Assembly (NCBI GenBank): GCA_011523515.1 | Contig: WTGO01000057.1 | Coordinates: 1 to 64,000, forward strand | DNA length: 64,000 nt | Reading direction: 5' to 3' | Source of the DNA: Chloroflexota bacterium | GTDB lineage: Bacteria > Chloroflexota > Anaerolineae > Aggregatilineales > Phototrophicaceae | Shown here: piece by piece, positions 18,454-53,553 of the stretch | Layout: each line of letters opens with the position of its first letter | How positions within the stretch are numbered: the first letter of the stretch is position 1 | The notes under the pieces: model-generated | What the model saw: only the letters and a program-made list of their open reading frames with translations | Database searches by the model: none | Told to the model about the DNA's origin: nothing | Translations under genes and position numbers: made by a program

Positions 18454-20943
18454 CTATCCGAGCAGTGTTGGGAAACCGTCGTCGAGTTCAATCTCTGTCG
18501 GCGCCACGGTCAGTGCGGCAGACCGAGCGAGAGTCCTCGCTTCCGCTTTCAAGGCAAGTGCGCACCTTACGGATTCTATAACGAGACCTCTTTCGTCAGA
18601 ATCTTTGGGAATTGGCAATTGCAGTTCTCGAACGCGAGCACCGAGGGTATCAATAATATCCTGTGTAAATCGTTTCGCGTATATTTGTTCCCGAACAATT
18701 GGGCTTGAGAGAATCGCCAGAAGTAAAGCCGGGGGCATGAGCTCGTGATCATTGGATCTGATCTTGTAAATGTGACTCTGATAGACAATCTCTGTGGTAT
18801 CTTCAGTAATCATTGCACAAGTGCCAACAAGGTACGTTCCATCTCGCACCATTAATATATCGCCTACTTGTACATCCTGGCGTTCCCGCAAAGATTCGTA
18901 AATGTCTTCACTGACACAATGTTTAGGGTCTAGTTTTATTTCCCAGTTCGCGATGTCGGATGTGCGAATAAATGGAACGGGGCCAGTGCCATATGCCAAT
19001 TTTCCGACCTCGTTACCTGTGCGCAAATCTATCACACCTCGATTTATAAGCTCACCAAAATCAAGAATGTGATGAGTTTCACTGAGAGTTCCTATCTTTT
19101 CCTCGACTTCTGGATTGTAGTATTTTGGTAGATATATGTCGTCTACGATTTGGTCTTCTCGAATAGCGAAACCAAAATGGTCATATTCAATAGCTCCAGT
19201 CGTGTACTCGGAAAACTTGTTCTTGATTTTCGGAATATCGTCATAGGGAATCAGGATCCCCCTGGAGTCGTGACCGCACCAACGGGCAACAGCCATAAAT
19301 ATTGCATGCGGGTTGTCCTTGTTGGTCGGTGTCTTTTCGAGAAGAACACCGCAAGCTTTCGCATGCGTGTAAGGTTGGAACAACTCTTCTGGAAAGGATA
19401 CGACGGCAACTATGCGGGCTACGGACTTGATGTGCTGGATGACATAGCGGTGTGACGGATTACACAACATTGACTCGGGAAGAATTATTCCGGCGCGTCC
19501 ACCTGCTCTCAACAACGACAGGCAACGCTCTACAAAGAGAATCTGAGGGGGCCTGCTTTCTTGCAGCATATCTAAACGGCTATATTCCGTTGTGCCTTTT
19601 TGCTTTTTCCATTTGTGGCCAAGATCAAATTTTTTCAGTATTGATTCATCATCAATCTTTAGTTTTTTGCCAAACGGGGGATTTGTAAGCAGTACATCAA
19701 AGTACCCGAGATATATCTCCTGCCGCGTATTCGGATGCCAGTTGTTAAGGTTTTCAAGACTATTTTCGCAGTATACACCGCCCCTACCATCGCCAACGAT
19801 CGCCATGTATGCCTTGGCAACCTTAGCGAGGAAATAATCCTTGTCGACTCCGCGAAATTGTCGGATGGCCACCCGTTGCTTTTCGGCGGAAATCTCTTGT
19901 GCGGGCCATCCTAGCTCTTCGCATTGTCTTTCAACTTTCCGCCAAACGTCACGAAGTGCTTCAATTAAGAATCCTCCTGATCCACAGGCGGGGTCTATAA
20001 TTTTGTCTCTAGTTTGCAGATTGGTCATTGTGACGAGGAGATTAACTACATTTCGTGGCGTGAAAAACTGACCTTGACCACCTTTCAGTGACGGACCAAT
20101 GAATGTCTCGAAAGCTTCCCCGATTGCGTCGCGATTGGCTTCTGTTAAGGTGAAGAGTTGTAACTCGCCCACTATGTACTCAACGGATTTATCGTCGAGC
20201 ATTAGCGAGTCATCTTCCTCAATGACGTCTCCATACTGATCTTTAACGTTATCAAACAATTCGTCGATGCGTACCCTTACGTCCTTAGTAGGCTCATCAA
20301 TGCCTACCCGAAATCTAACCATGTCATCGGGACGTGTGAACCGTTCATCATATATCTTGCAGAAGATAAGATTGATGATTTGCTGCGCAAATACTTCGTC
20401 TCGGGTAATGCCAACCGCATTTGCTGCTAAGTAATTCCGAATAGTCTTGAAAACGCTCTTGAGATTCTGAGCGGGTCGCAAATCACGTCGGCGGTAAAGT
20501 CCAATATCTTCGAGACGTTCTCCGAACTGAGGAATGTTTGGTATTTCTTCGAAGAATACTTTGCCCTTGCTCTCTGACTTTTTCAAAAAAAGCTTTTCGT
20601 CTCCGTTGAACCATACGCCTACCCTTGCCTCAGAGAAGCGCAGATAGTCCTGTAGTTGTGAACGACCACTCCGCCGGTTCGGCTTTTTACACTCCACAAT
20701 GATTTTGAGAGTTTCATCCAAATGTTCGCGGCTCGAAAACACTGCGATATCAATCGGGTACTCTCTCCGAAAATCTGACGGACGGGCTTTGACTCTCCAT
20801 TGAGGGTGTGTGCGAATATTGCTACGAGGGTAACCGTAGTCGTTTACAAGTATTTTCGAAAAAACTTGTACGGCATGAACCTCTTCTGGAGTAGCCCTAA
20901 CAGACTTGCCGGAAACAAAGTCCACTAACGTTCTACTGGTCAT
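18454..20943 (-). CDS. Single-chain restriction-modification enzyme (HsdR_N nuclease + N6-MTase + HsdS-like TRD)
   Basis: The 829-residue protein combines three parts. An N-terminal type I R-like nuclease domain has D65 (PIDIAVF) and E84-C-K86 (IIVECKKP), a PD-(D/E)xK site. An HsdM-like N6-adenine methyltransferase has motif I DPACGSGGF at 317-325 and motif IV NPPF at 421-424. A C-terminal target-recognition region lies at about 605-829 (GPVPFIRTSDIANWEI, VGDILMVRDGTYLVG). This order is that of type IIG/type IIL-like enzymes, which cut and methylate with one chain. No separate HsdR, HsdS or helicase is adjacent. The gene is visibly AT-richer than its neighbours, a sign of recent transfer. The recognition site cannot be predicted. 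Confidence 0.85.
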   Translation of the reverse strand: MTSRTLVDFVSGKSVRATPEEVHAVQVFSKILVNDYGYPRSNIRTHPQWRVKARPSDFRREYPIDIAVFSSREHLDETLKIIVECKKPNRRSGRSQLQDYLRFSEARVGVWFNGDEKLFLKKSESKGKVFFEEIPNIPQFGERLEDIGLYRRRDLRPAQNLKSVFKTIRNYLAANAVGITRDEVFAQQIINLIFCKIYDERFTRPDDMVRFRVGIDEPTKDVRVRIDELFDNVKDQYGDVIEEDDSLMLDDKSVEYIVGELQLFTLTEANRDAIGEAFETFIGPSLKGGQGQFFTPRNVVNLLVTMTNLQTRDKIIDPACGSGGFLIEALRDVWRKVERQCEELGWPAQEISAEKQRVAIRQFRGVDKDYFLAKVAKAYMAIVGDGRGGVYCENSLENLNNWHPNTRQEIYLGYFDVLLTNPPFGKKLKIDDESILKKFDLGHKWKKQKGTTEYSRLDMLQESRPPQILFVERCLSLLRAGGRAGIILPESMLCNPSHRYVIQHIKSVARIVAVVSFPEELFQPYTHAKACGVLLEKTPTNKDNPHAIFMAVARWCGHDSRGILIPYDDIPKIKNKFSEYTTGAIEYDHFGFAIREDQIVDDIYLPKYYNPEVEEKIGTLSETHHILDFGELINRGVIDLRTGNEVGKLAYGTGPVPFIRTSDIANWEIKLDPKHCVSEDIYESLRERQDVQVGDILMVRDGTYLVGTCAMITEDTTEIVYQSHIYKIRSNDHELMPPALLLAILSSPIVREQIYAKRFTQDIIDTLGARVRELQLPIPKDSDERGLVIESVRCALALKAEARTLARSAALTVAPTEIELDDGFPTLLG

Positions 20944-23247: not shown

Positions 23248-23267
23248 GGGCGAGCCAAGGCTCGCCC
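23248..23267. repeat. Short palindromic repeat (gggcgagcc type)
   Basis: A perfect 9-bp inverted repeat with a 2-base centre lies in the 304-bp gap between 23184 and 23487. Relatives occur at 34702-34722, 34744-34764 and 48824-48846. Apart from the ribosome-binding site of the next gene, nothing else recognisable is in the gap. It could act as a 3' hairpin for the upstream oxidoreductase mRNA, but there is no U-run. Confidence 0.6.
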
Positions 23268-23487
23268 CTGCAATCATACGATTATTTTGGCAGTTTCTTT
23301 CTTACTGCTGCGATTCTCATTACTTTGTTGGAACTACTGAGACCGCAGCAGCCGCTGCGATCCTCTAATCCACCACAGGATTGAGTTACAGTTCAAACAT
23401 CATTAGACTGTTAATAGGATGTCAGTCATCTTGCCGCGCCTAATATTGAATCTGATTGGTATTGTGACCCCAACGAGGAGGAGTAAA

Positions 23488-25581
23488 GTGCGAAGATTTG
23501 CCAGCCTAAGCAAGAGGATTTGCCTTGTAGCCATGTTGCTGCTTGCACTACTGTTGGCGCTACCTATGTCTGTCGGCGCGCAAGACACGATGGACGACAG
23601 CGTCTTTGTCAGCATTCGACATTACGGTGGCCTGGATCCGGACGGACAGGACGAACTTTACCGTCTCACTGCAGAAGGATTTCTGCCTATCATCCGCGAA
23701 TCTGAAGGCTACATCGGGTACTACTGGCTGCATGAGGGCGAAAATGTAGTAGCTGTCAGCTTGTTCGAGAGCCAGGCGCAGGCTGCGGCATCGGCAGAGT
23801 CGGCGCGAGAATATGTGAACGAGAACCTCGCCCATTTGGTGGCGGGACCGCCACGGACGGTCGAAGGCCAGGTCGATATCGGCTTCGTCGAATTGCTTGA
23901 CGGCATGGGCGATGGCGAAGTCAGCAGTTTGCATGCCAGTGTCCGCATCTACGATGGCTTTGAGGCCGCCGACCTGGACGAATTTGTCGCCATTGTCGAC
24001 GACGGCTTCCTGCCGATCATGCGCGAGACGGCTGGCTTCTTCGGCTACTATCTGATGCACGACGGCGCCGGCGCACTCGTCGCCATCAGCATCTTTGACT
24101 CAGAAGCGGCGTCGCTGGCGTCCAACGAGAATGCGCGCGACTTTGTCGCCGAGAAGCTGACGGCTTACCTGCCGAGCGCGCCCGCAATTGTCAGCGGGCG
24201 CGTTGGGATCGCGTCGCTCGCCGACTTGAATGAGGGCGCGAACCTGATCGACGATGCGCCCGTCTTTGTCAGCATCCGCGTTTACGACGGCGTCGACCCG
24301 ATGAAGCGCGATGAAATCGTACGTTTGGTGGATCCGCGTTTCCTGTCGATCATGCGCGAAAGCGATGGCTTCGTCGGCTACTACTTGCTGCCGGCGGGTG
24401 ACAAGCTGGCGGCGATCAGCTTGTTCGACTCCGCCGAGCAAGCGGCGGCGTCCAACGATAAGGCGCGGGATTATGTCGCCGAATACATGGCGCCCCTGCT
24501 GCCCAACGCGCCAACGATTGTCGAAGGTCATATTGATGTCATGTACGTGAACGATGCCGACGACATGACCATGGCCGACGGCATGTCTGAGTTGTACGCA
24601 TCGCTGCGCATCTATCCGGCCAGTGACATGAGTATGCTTGGGCAGTCAGTTGAGTCGGTGAAAGCCTACCTCTTGCCGGCGCTGCATGAAGCCGGGGGAT
24701 TATTCAGCTATTACGCGCTGAATGACGGCGACGATACAATCGCCGGATTGAATGTATACGTCTCCGAGGAGAAGGCGCTGGCCGCGAACGATATTGCCGC
24801 CGCCTTCAATGCCGAACATTCAGTGGACTTTTTGCCCGATGATCCACTGCGCGTCACCGGGCAGCTGGGTGTCGCGGCGCTGGCGGAGATTCGCATGGGC
24901 GAAAATCTGGTCGGTTCGACTACGGCCGAGCATGTTTTCGCCAGCGTGCGCGTTTACGACGGCATAGATCCGGGCGATCAGGATGAGATCGGCCGTCTGA
25001 CAGGTGAAGGCTTCTTGCCCATTATGCGCGAGAGTGACGGATTCGTCGGCTATTTTCTGCTGTCGGCGGGAGATAAGCTGACGGCTGTGAGCATGTTCAG
25101 ATCGGAGGGACAGGTGTCAGCGTCGAACGAAAAGGCGCGGGAATTCGTAGTGGAGAACCTGGCGCCGCTGCTGCCCAACGCGCCGAGGATCGTCGAAGGT
25201 CAATTGTCGATCAACCACGTTCCCGCGCAAAGCGATGGCGAGTTATTTGCCAGCGTGCGTTTCTATGAAGGCTTCGACCTTAGTCACTTTGACGAAGCGA
25301 ATGACCTGGCGATTGCGCACCTGCTGCCGGCGCTGGAGGACTTGGGCGGCCTGTTCGCGCAATACGCCTTAAATGATGGTGAGGATACGGTTGTTGGCAT
25401 CAGTATTTTCGCGGACGAAGAAGCGTCCATGTCGTCCAATGATGTGGGCAAAGCCTTCACCATGGAATACCTGGCCGATTGGGCGCCGAACCCGCCGACT
25501 GGCCTCTCCGGCAAGCTGGCGATTGCGGCGTTGGCGGAGGTTCGCATGGGCGAGAACCTGGTCGGCGCGGTGATGGAGTAG
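23488..25581 (+). CDS. Secreted protein of six tandem ABM/EthD-like (dimeric alpha-beta barrel) units
   Basis: GTG 23488 is chosen because AGGAGGAG precedes it; 697 residues. A signal peptide (RICLVAMLLLALLLALPMSVGAQ) is followed by six units of about 100-113 residues, starting near 23596, 23926, 24259, 24589, 24931 and 25240. Each has a strand such as FVSIRVYDGVDP, a helix ending FLPIMRES, a strand GFVGYYLL, a second strand AISLFDS, a helix with SNDKARDYVAE and a final strand IVEGxxxI. This order resembles the ferredoxin-like antibiotic-biosynthesis-monooxygenase/EthD fold, which normally dimerises. Units 4 and 6 form a variant class (LLPALxxxGGLF, YALNDGxDT), and the ends of units 2, 4 and 6 share a LAxxRMGENLVG-like tail, so the protein looks like three two-unit repeats. 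Catalytic residues are not evident. The function is unknown. Confidence 0.8.
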   Translation: MRRFASLSKRICLVAMLLLALLLALPMSVGAQDTMDDSVFVSIRHYGGLDPDGQDELYRLTAEGFLPIIRESEGYIGYYWLHEGENVVAVSLFESQAQAAASAESAREYVNENLAHLVAGPPRTVEGQVDIGFVELLDGMGDGEVSSLHASVRIYDGFEAADLDEFVAIVDDGFLPIMRETAGFFGYYLMHDGAGALVAISIFDSEAASLASNENARDFVAEKLTAYLPSAPAIVSGRVGIASLADLNEGANLIDDAPVFVSIRVYDGVDPMKRDEIVRLVDPRFLSIMRESDGFVGYYLLPAGDKLAAISLFDSAEQAAASNDKARDYVAEYMAPLLPNAPTIVEGHIDVMYVNDADDMTMADGMSELYASLRIYPASDMSMLGQSVESVKAYLLPALHEAGGLFSYYALNDGDDTIAGLNVYVSEEKALAANDIAAAFNAEHSVDFLPDDPLRVTGQLGVAALAEIRMGENLVGSTTAEHVFASVRVYDGIDPGDQDEIGRLTGEGFLPIMRESDGFVGYFLLSAGDKLTAVSMFRSEGQVSASNEKAREFVVENLAPLLPNAPRIVEGQLSINHVPAQSDGELFASVRFYEGFDLSHFDEANDLAIAHLLPALEDLGGLFAQYALNDGEDTVVGISIFADEEASMSSNDVGKAFTMEYLADWAPNPPTGLSGKLAIAALAEVRMGENLVGAVME

Positions 25582-40609: not shown

Positions 40610-41809
40610 ATGGCGAAAAAGAACTGGCCCAGCAAAGCCATGTGGACGGGCGATTGTCTCTATGTTATGCGGGGGATGAACTCGCAGAGCGTCGATTTGA
40701 TTTATCTTGACCCGCCATTCAACTCCAATGCCGATTACGCCGCGCCGATTGGAAGCCAGGCGGCGGGAGCGGCCTTCACGGATACGTGGGTGCTGAGTGA
40801 CCTGGATGTCGAGTGGATAAACTTGATTGAGTCGCGGCATCCGGCACTTTATCGCGCTTTGCTTGCCGCTACTACACCGAGCGACAAGTCGTATCTGGTG
40901 TACATGGCGGCACGACTGCTGGAAATGCGGCGTGTGCTCAAGCCAGACGGAAGCGTCTACCTGCACTGCGACCAAACGATGTCGCACTATTTGAAAATCC
41001 TGATGGACGCTATTTTCGGACGTCGTTGCTTTCGCAACAACATCGTCTGGAGTTATCGACGCTGGACCGGCGCCGCGCGGCACTTCCAACGCATGCACGA
41101 CGACATCCTATATTATGCCTGCGAAGGCGCTACGTTCAATGCGCTAACCGAGTCCTACAGCACAAAGTCCAAGCACAAGCGTGCCCGGCGAAGCGTCTTG
41201 GGCGCTAGTGGCAAGCTTGAGCAAGTGTATACCGAGGATGACAGCCGCCAGCAATCAATGCGTGATGTTTGGGAGATTTCATATCTCAACTCACAGGCTA
41301 AAGAACGTGTCGGTTACCCCACGCAAAAGCCGCTGGCTCTTCTCGACCGCGTCATACGCGCCAGCAGCAATGAAGGGGATGTCGTGCTTGACCCCTTCTG
41401 TGGCTGCGCGACAACTTGCGTCGCTGCGGACGACTTAGGACGCGATTGGATTGGCATCGACATTTCGCCGAAAGCTGCCGAGCTGGTCGTGCAACGAATT
41501 GCAGAGCGACAAGGGCTGTTTCGCGATATCACGCATCGTACCGATATTCCCATTCGCACCGATCTGGGTAAACTGCCGCGTTACAACAGCGTCGAAAATC
41601 GTCAGCGACTCTATGGGATGCAGGCGGGCGATTGCGCTGGCTGCGGGCAGCATTTTCAACTGCGCAACCTGGAAACGGACCACATCATATCGCGTGGAAA
41701 AGGCGGCACTGACCACCTTGAAAACTTGCAGTTGCTCTGCGGCGCCTGCAACCGTGTCAAAGGCAACCGCGGCATGGAGTATCTGCGGGCAAAACTGCAA
41801 CTGAATTAA
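40610..41809 (+). CDS. DNA methyltransferase fused to a C-terminal HNH nuclease domain
   Basis: A 399-residue protein. Residues 1-300 are a beta-class DNA adenine/cytosine-N4 methyltransferase: catalytic motif DPPF at 34-37 precedes the AdoMet motif DPFCGCATT at 261-269, with TQKP just before it. Residues about 340-390 form an HNH domain with two Cys pairs (CAGC at 342-345, CGAC at 377-380), DH at 357-358 and Asn at 372, as in ETDHIISRGKGGTDHLENLQ. Methylation and possible cutting therefore sit in one chain. It might be a compact restriction-modification enzyme, or a methyltransferase with a DNA-binding HNH remnant; the HNH key residues look intact. The 3' end overlaps convergent recN by 4 bp. 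Confidence 0.87.
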   Translation: MAKKNWPSKAMWTGDCLYVMRGMNSQSVDLIYLDPPFNSNADYAAPIGSQAAGAAFTDTWVLSDLDVEWINLIESRHPALYRALLAATTPSDKSYLVYMAARLLEMRRVLKPDGSVYLHCDQTMSHYLKILMDAIFGRRCFRNNIVWSYRRWTGAARHFQRMHDDILYYACEGATFNALTESYSTKSKHKRARRSVLGASGKLEQVYTEDDSRQQSMRDVWEISYLNSQAKERVGYPTQKPLALLDRVIRASSNEGDVVLDPFCGCATTCVAADDLGRDWIGIDISPKAAELVVQRIAERQGLFRDITHRTDIPIRTDLGKLPRYNSVENRQRLYGMQAGDCAGCGQHFQLRNLETDHIISRGKGGTDHLENLQLLCGACNRVKGNRGMEYLRAKLQLN

Positions 41810-51477: not shown

Positions 51478-53553
51478 TTAGTAGGCCTCCCGGAAGCGCG
51501 TGATAATGACGCGGCTTAGCGCGTTGAGTACGAAAGTCATCACAAATAGCGTTAAGCCGATGGCGAAGATGCTGTTGTAATCGATGGAATCGTAGCTGAG
51601 ATCGCCGCCGCTGATGCGGGCGATGTGGCCCGTCATGGTCTCGGCGGAGTCGAAGGGACTGAAGCTCAGATTGGGGCCGGCGCCCGCCGCGATGGCAACG
51701 ATCATCGTCTCGCCAATGGCGCGTGATGTCGCCACGATGAATGCCGCCAAAATGCCCGAAAGCGCCGCCGGAACCACGACCTTGATCACGGTCTCCAGCT
51801 TGGTCGCTCCCAATCCATACGAGGCTTCGCGCAGCGCGTTGGGAACGGCGTATAAAGCGTCTTCGCTCATTGAGCTGACCAGCGGAATGATCAAGATGCC
51901 GACCACGATGCCGGCTGAGCCGGTGTTGTAGATATTGACCACATCCGCGCCGAAGACGGCGCGCAGCAGCGGCGTCATAAATGTCAGCGCGAAGTAGCCA
52001 TAGACTACTGTCGGGATGCCGGCCAGGATCTCCAACAGCGGTTTCAGGGTCTTGCGCACGCGTTCAGAGGCGTATTCGCTGAGGTAGATAGCGGCGCCGA
52101 GGCCCAGGGGCAGCGCCACCAGCATCGCGATCGTACTGGTCATCAGCGTGGCGTTGATAAGCGGCAATATCCCAAATTCACCGATGGCCGGGATCCAGCT
52201 TGTGCTGCTGAAGAACTCCACGATTGTGGGCTGATCATTGTATTCAAGCGCCACGCCGGCGCGGTGCGGCGTGATTGTGTTCTCGCCACGGACGCCGCGC
52301 TTCACCGTCAGACGCGGCAGATAACCAGCGGCTACAAAGGCGTCAGCAATGCGTTGCGTCAGCGGCAAGACCGTAGAACTGCCCGCCAGGCGGAGTTCGC
52401 CAAAGACGTCTGCCGGGTCCACCACGGCCATCTCGCCTGCGCCGGTCAAGCGACTCCATGCGTTGCGCGTCTGCTCCGCTTTCAACGCCGGGAAATAGCC
52501 CACATCGACGATGAGATCGTCGACCTTGTCGAGATAATAGCTGATGAAACTTGCCGCTTGCGGGTGATCGCGCATGATGCCGGCATCGCTGTAAATGAAT
52601 AGCGGTCGCGCCAGGGCGTAGCTGCCGTCCTCCACAGTTTCCGCTGCCGGTTTGATGCCGTCCAGCGCGATAACCCGGAGGTCATCCCGGTTGTTCCGAT
52701 AGTAGGCGTAGCCTAAGAAGCCGATACTAAGCGGGTTGCGCGTGATGCTGCCGACGAGTTGATTGTCATTCTCGGACATGATCGGGTCAGTCGCCAAGAT
52801 CGCGCTGGCATCGCCTGCCAGGACTGCTTCCACAAAGAAATCGAGTGTGCCGCTGTCTTGGCCGGGGATGACCAGCTCGATCGCTTCGTCAGGCCAGTCG
52901 GCGCGCGCATCGGACCAGGTTTCCGCGCCGCTGAAAATCTTTCGCAGCTCGTCAAGCTTCAGCTCCGTGAGGAAGTCGTTGTCGGCGCTGACGACGATTG
53001 CCAGCGCGTCCGTGCCCACGCGGAACTCGACCGGCGCGATTCCTGCCGAGGCGCAAACATCAATCTCCGACCGCCTGATCGGGCGGCTGGCGTTGATAAT
53101 CTGCGGGCGCTGCAGGCCAGCAGCGGCGAGCTCCGCCTCAGCCAGGCACCAGCGCCTGAATCCACCGCCGGTCCCGAACACATCGATCATTAGCTGATTG
53201 TCATGGAACTGGCGAACTTCCATGACCTCCTGCCCGACGCGGATTATGCTTCCAGCTGCAATGGAATCGAGCGCATTGCCCGGCTCGACGGCGAAGGTAG
53301 AAGCGCTCTCGTCCAGGTCGCTCAATATAGCGCGATTGCTGTTGATCCATTGGTCGCGAGTGAAGAACGAAATCGACTCGTTGCCCAAAACCAAGATGAT
53401 GCCAATCGTCGTGAAGATTGAAAGCAGCCCGCAAGCCAAGAGGCTGAGCTCGATGGCGACTTCGTGAAGCTTAAGGCGACGTTTCAAACCGAGCGAATGC
53501 GACTTGCGTGAGACTATCGTTTTGCTTGGATCTTGTTGCTTATGCTGTGTCAT
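51478..53553 (-). CDS. pstC: Phosphate ABC transporter permease PstC with an inserted, permuted PstS-like domain
   Basis: A 691-residue protein against about 300 for typical PstC. Helix 1 is at about 33-57 and the remaining permease helices at about 448-691 ([36 protein letters not shown] as EAA loop). Between them residues about 125-410 resemble Pst[55 protein letters not shown]. The PstS-start motif [12 protein letters not shown] occurs at 390-401, after the rest of the domain, so the order is circularly permuted. The same motifs in the same operon's pstS come in normal order. The inserted domain should lie outside the membrane next to the channel. Start ATG 53553 is 110 bp after pstS. Confidence 0.92.

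What the first reader, a model, noticed from the sequence alone, without database searches (positions are those of the whole stretch)
23488..25581. Secreted protein with six tandem ABM/EthD-like units in three pairs
Single-domain members of this fold dimerise. Here six units are linked in one exported chain, and two unit types alternate (units 4 and 6 share YALNDG, the even units share a GENL tail). Three covalent pseudo-dimers would be an unusual design for a secreted protein, perhaps ligand binding instead of catalysis.
Basis: partly seen in the sequence, partly recalled or inferred. Interest (0 to 1): 0.7.

Follow-up and report, generated by a model that had tools for sequence, protein, structure and literature searches.

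The report
Secreted chain of paired ABM-like barrels
A bacterium whose nearest named relatives come from sponge-associated metagenomes exports one protein built from six copies of a small fold that normally works in twos; its relatives carry 2, 4, 6, 8 or 10 copies and never an odd number, so the pair is the building block, although what it binds or does is still unknown.

Summary
Confirmed. The gene at 23488-25581 (697 aa, GTG start with a strong ribosome site) encodes a signal peptide and six tandem ~110-aa ABM-like units. All units align (z 11-62 over shuffles) and two types alternate. AlphaFold predicts units 5-6 as one fused dimeric alpha+beta barrel (pLDDT 93.8, pTM 0.90; Z 18 to known two-domain ABM-like proteins over both halves); in the full-chain model the listed PDB matches fall on units 1-2 and 3-4, never 2-3. 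In a FastTree phylogeny all 92 odd units form one clade and all 92 even units another (IQ-TREE keeps the even clade, 100, but makes odd units a grade). Units of one pair co-diverge more than neighbours across pairs. More than two units in one frame were not seen in other sampled Chloroflexota. New variant of a known kind: fused pseudo-dimers are known; a secreted array growing by whole pseudo-dimers was not found described. Function is inferred: most likely extracellular small-molecule binding; no canonical catalytic set is conserved, but a strand-1 R-x-Y is, so catalysis is not excluded.

The parts
23475..23483 (+). Shine-Dalgarno sequence GAGGAGGAG, 4 nt before the GTG start
   Evidence: sequence read directly
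23488..25581 (+). gene for the six-unit exported ABM-like protein, 697 aa, GTG start
   Evidence: ORF; start supported by the ribosome site and by the N-termini of relatives
23488..23580 (+). signal peptide, hydrophobic core then ...SVGA|QD, no lipobox cysteine at the cleavage site
   Evidence: sequence; signal-like N-termini in nearly all genus copies; cleavage site inferred by eye, no dedicated predictor run
23596..23922 (+). unit 1 (type A)
   Evidence: unit alignment and tree
23923..24255 (+). unit 2 (type B, GANL tail); pseudo-dimer 1 with unit 1
   Evidence: full-chain model residues 4-218 match fused two-domain barrels
24256..24585 (+). unit 3 (type A)
24586..24927 (+). unit 4 (type B, YALNDG, GENL tail); pseudo-dimer 2 with unit 3
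   Evidence: full-chain model residues 226-444 match fused barrels
24928..25236 (+). unit 5 (type A)
25237..25578 (+). unit 6 (type B, YALNDG, GENL tail); pseudo-dimer 3 with unit 5
   Evidence: pair model pLDDT 93.8, pTM 0.90; VIA-align Z 18.5 to 3f44 over both halves

Best explanation
The gene encodes an exported bead-string of three single-chain dimeric alpha+beta barrels, each made of a type A unit followed by a type B unit of a divergent ABM-like family. Shown by computation: six units, two types, a predicted paired fold, and copy-number change by whole pairs. Inferred history: a single-unit ABM-like gene was duplicated and fused into an A-B heterodimer in one chain, gained a signal peptide, and in this genus was multiplied by tandem duplication of the A-B block, giving 2 to 10 units. 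Inferred function: each barrel binds a small, probably hydrophobic or aromatic molecule outside the cell, through a pocket to which the conserved strand-1 Arg-x-Tyr of each unit may contribute, and repeating the barrels raises capacity or avidity. The confidence given is for architecture and history with binding as the leading function; the architecture alone I would put near 0.9, binding rather than catalysis near 0.45.
For: Six alignable units and PF03992 on the whole chain. Pair model at pLDDT 93.8, pTM 0.90, matching 3f44 (Z 18.5, 195 aligned, 3.9 A), 3mcs, 2pgc, sulfur oxygenase reductase and PenE over both halves. Full-chain model: listed matches lie at residues 1-227 or 226-444, i.e. 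units 1-2 and 3-4, never 2-3. Even unit numbers in every multi-unit array: 2, 4, 6, 8, 10, recounted by profile search in 31 of 34 genus genomes (one genome adds a lone degenerate copy elsewhere). About 13 parsimony changes of unit number, all even. A-A distances correlate with B-B distances for the B of the same pair (r 0.51) more than for the preceding B (r 0.27); bootstrap over proteins gives a 95% interval of the difference of 0.01-0.45. The B-unit G-x-N-L tail is present at the C-terminus too, so it belongs to the pair and is not only a linker. R7-x-Y9 conserved in A (100/100%), B (83/100%) and single units (90/90%). Purifying selection.
Against: No ligand, substrate or expression data. 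A pair-only step could come from the recombination mechanism alone, since A recombines with A more easily than with B, so even numbers do not by themselves prove selection for pairs. Short-read assemblies may collapse repeats. The AB-versus-BA phase difference is only just significant (2% of bootstraps at or below zero). IQ-TREE on a reduced set makes A units a grade with B (100 support) nested, and groups genus and sister-genus units separately, so the pairing may have arisen twice or been blurred by gene conversion. The side of the sheet on which R-x-Y lies was not read from coordinates. The neighbourhood gives no functional link: the gene stands alone between a Gfo/Idh/MocA gene and a convergent Fic gene.
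Confidence: 0.6

Rival explanations
1. An extracellular cofactor-free oxygenase of the ABM type: each barrel oxidises a phenolic or quinol-like compound, with several active sites per chain.
For: Fold matches include enzymes of this superfamily: PenE, an anthrone-oxidase-like protein, HmoB, LmHde. R-x-Y, a strand-2 Tyr and a strand-3 Ser/Asn are conserved in both unit types.
Against: No conserved His, no Cys and no evident Asn/Trp/His set (triad in PMC6018153). No sequence-level solved relative. Type B units replace the Arg by Ala in about 15% of cases.
Confidence: 0.3
2. A structural or adhesive surface protein: the barrels are spacers, and unit number sets the reach of the chain, as in other variable-repeat surface proteins.
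For: Copy number varies 2-10 between species at a syntenic locus. Strongly acidic exported chain, pI 4.1. Full chain has low pTM (0.46) with high pLDDT (83.6), fitting beads of uncertain mutual arrangement.
Against: No cell-wall or membrane anchor was seen after the last unit (reading of the sequence). Residues are conserved inside each unit down to distant single-unit relatives, more than a spacer would need.
Confidence: 0.2
3. Even unit numbers are only a by-product of unequal recombination between like units and say nothing about function.
For: In the window protein A and B units are 20-47% identical while A units are 49-60% identical to each other, so recombination in A-A register is favoured.
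Against: The paired fold is predicted independently of copy number, and a two-unit secreted form exists in sister genera.
Confidence: 0.3

Closest known systems
Two-domain ABM-like proteins of structural genomics: 3f44 (Lactobacillus acidophilus), 3mcs (Fusobacterium nucleatum FN1347), 2pgc (marine metagenome)
   Same: single-chain dimeric alpha+beta barrel; the whole pair aligns, Z 16-18.5 over 190-200 residues
   Different: one pair per chain of about 205-218 residues, 10-12% identity, against three pairs plus a signal peptide here
Isd-LmHde / HmoB, IsdG-type heme-degrading enzymes
   Same: Isd-LmHde is a monomer whose two domains form a barrel like the IsdG dimer (PMC6018153); Z 11-12
   Different: the N-terminal half of Isd-LmHde is a pseudo-ferredoxin-like fold; the Asn/Trp/His set has no evident counterpart here
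PenE (9kdp) and anthrone-oxidase-like 5f9p
   Same: two barrel halves in one chain, Z about 14
   Different: single pair, 6-12% identity; no enzyme chemistry has been shown here
Single-unit ABM-like proteins of about 100-120 aa in other Chloroflexota and on Streptomyces/Embleya plasmids
   Same: same unit family, about 23-38% identity, R-x-Y shared
   Different: one unit; mostly too short to hold a signal peptide; annotated as hypothetical or not at all
Two-unit secreted proteins of sister genera (L065-L068)
   Same: signal peptide plus one pair, same bacterial family
   Different: only one pair per chain; their units group apart from the genus units

Membership tests
Pfam ABM (PF03992) | profile match above the curated cut-off | tested here: met
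   whole chain 38.6 bits against cut-off 23.1; but few single units match at E<=0.01, so a divergent branch
Dimeric alpha+beta barrel superfamily | beta-alpha-beta-beta-alpha-beta units packed sheet to sheet in twos | tested here: met
   predicted secondary structure and fused-barrel matches over both halves; a prediction, not a solved structure
EthD | match to the EthD profile | tested here: inconclusive
   no EthD match among Pfam hits at E up to 10; absence of a hit does not exclude distant kinship
IsdG-type heme oxygenases | Asn/Trp/His catalytic triad | tested here: not met
   no His position is conserved across the units and no conserved Asn lies in strand 1; triad from PMC6018153; residue equivalence by eye
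Sulfur oxygenase reductase | catalytic cysteine (from general knowledge of the family) | tested here: not met
   the mature chain has no cysteine
Exported protein | N-terminal signal peptide | tested here: met
   hydrophobic segment ending in SVGA-QD, similar in kind across genus copies; read by eye

The most novel reading that the evidence does not exclude
A genus of sponge-associated Chloroflexota carries a secreted binding protein whose capacity is tuned by adding or removing whole heterodimeric pseudo-dimers: a parity-locked repeat protein in which the dimer, not the domain, is the unit of evolution.
Probability: 0.35. Interest if true: 0.65.

Novelty: new variant of a known kind. Interest (0 to 1): 0.5.

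Why it matters
Obligate dimers fused into one chain are known, but long arrays that change length only by whole pseudo-dimers give a clean natural series (1 to 5 pairs at a syntenic locus in about 30 species) for testing how a homodimer becomes a heterodimer and then a repeat protein. The gene is present in 31 of 34 genomes of the genus, so it probably matters to the life of these bacteria, several of which come from marine sponges.

Tried and rejected
Profile search of solved-structure sequences with the unit alignment: only chance matches. NCBIfam: nothing. Viral structure library: only weak or single-pair matches, a Hyperionvirus ABM protein best. A whole-genome scan with PF03992 itself missed even this gene, so the absence of other ABM genes in the genome is not shown. 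Literature searches for multi-unit secreted ABM proteins found none, which is weak evidence in an open-access library. Neighbouring genes were examined as a functional clue and rejected: the gene is not in an evident operon.

Full report
Observation. The ORF is at 23488-25581 on the + strand. The protein has a hydrophobic signal segment ending in SVGA-QD and six units of 103-114 residues. Identities between units are 20-60%, and every pair of units scores far above shuffled sequences. Pfam finds only ABM, E 1.2e-9. The mature chain has no cysteine and a pI of 4.1.

Relatives. Nine named relatives came from a scan of genome contigs, all Chloroflexota or Anaerolineae MAGs. Bin prefixes COS, RHO and APA fit the sponges Coscinoderma, Rhopaloeides and Aplysina studied in PMC8163846; this reading of the prefixes is my inference. 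In the window's order 37 of 154 genomes match, 31 of them among the 34 genomes of the genus. A profile search confirms this for the family. Elsewhere in the class and phylum the unit occurs as proteins of one or, rarely, two units; no frame with more than two units was seen outside the genus among the sampled genomes. Not every one of those frames was inspected.

Parity. Counting units with a profile made from the six window units gave 2, 4, 6, 8 or 10 units in every multi-unit array, apart from one lone degenerate copy in G408 (L072); loci cut off by the fetched stretch were replaced by full ones. Mapping on a tree of the last pair gives about 13 changes, all even. This tree is built on a short alignment and is approximate. 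Unequal recombination between like units would also give even steps, so parity alone does not prove that the pair is selected.

Types. A FastTree of 209 units, rooted on a single-unit relative, separates all 92 odd from all 92 even units of the genus, supports 0.845 and 0.968; 6 label changes against at least 68 in 500 shuffles. IQ-TREE on 65 units supports the even clade at 100 but makes the odd units a grade, and places the sister-genus pairs in a clade of their own. Type B units carry an extra residue in the strand 2-3 hairpin and the G-x-N-L tail.

Phase. For 61 A units that have a B on both sides, A-A distances track distances of the B that follows (r 0.51) better than of the B that precedes (r 0.27); the bootstrap interval of the difference over proteins is 0.01-0.45. 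The inherited block is therefore most likely A-B, i.e. 1-2, 3-4, 5-6.

Structure. AlphaFold on units 5-6 with 98 pairs gives pLDDT 93.8 and pTM 0.90. Known fused barrels match over both halves, best 3f44 Z 18.5 and 3mcs Z 18.1. On the full mature chain pLDDT is 83.6 and pTM 0.46, so the unit folds are confident but the arrangement of the pairs is not. All listed matches to that model fall on residues 1-227 or 226-444, which are units 1-2 and 3-4.

Function. The gene stands alone: a Gfo/Idh/MocA gene lies upstream with a GC-rich inverted repeat between, and a Fic gene converges from downstream. This order is kept in many relatives. Conserved residues are R7 and Y9 of strand 1, G37, and a strand-3 Ser/Asn. 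The IsdG triad described in PMC6018153 has no evident counterpart. I take extracellular small-molecule binding as most likely, an ABM-type oxygenase next, and a structural role third; none has been tested.

Novelty. Fused pseudo-dimers of this fold are known, Isd-LmHde being a described example (PMC6018153). A secreted array that grows by whole pseudo-dimers was not found in the literature searched. I rate it a new variant of a known kind.

Noticed in passing
window 18454-20943 (-): One 829-aa protein joins a MAD2-like DNA methyltransferase (NF047738, 382 bits, below its cut-off of 720) to a MAD5-like specificity part (NF047740, weak), with an HsdR-like N-terminus in Pfam. A possible fused relative of the MADS defence components.
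   Followed up: no
window 51478-53553 (-): One 691-aa frame matches a phosphate-binding PstS family protein (residues 122-355) and the permease PstC (443-687), i.e. binding protein and permease fused in one chain.
   Followed up: no
L072 2414-2725 (-), genome G408: A lone, degenerate extra copy of one unit with a stop in the matched stretch, away from the main eight-unit gene; probably a relic.
   Followed up: partly
L065 3577-5309 and L066 2950-4677: In a sister genus two neighbouring genes each carry one pair of units; the first has a signal segment, the second does not appear to.
   Followed up: partly
window 40610-41809 (+): DNA methylase (N6_N4_Mtase) fused to an HNH nuclease domain in one 399-aa protein.
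   Followed up: no
window 23248-23267: Perfect GC-rich inverted repeat gggcgagcc-aa-ggctcgccc between the upstream dehydrogenase gene and the array gene; hairpin-forming, without a T run directly behind it.
   Followed up: no
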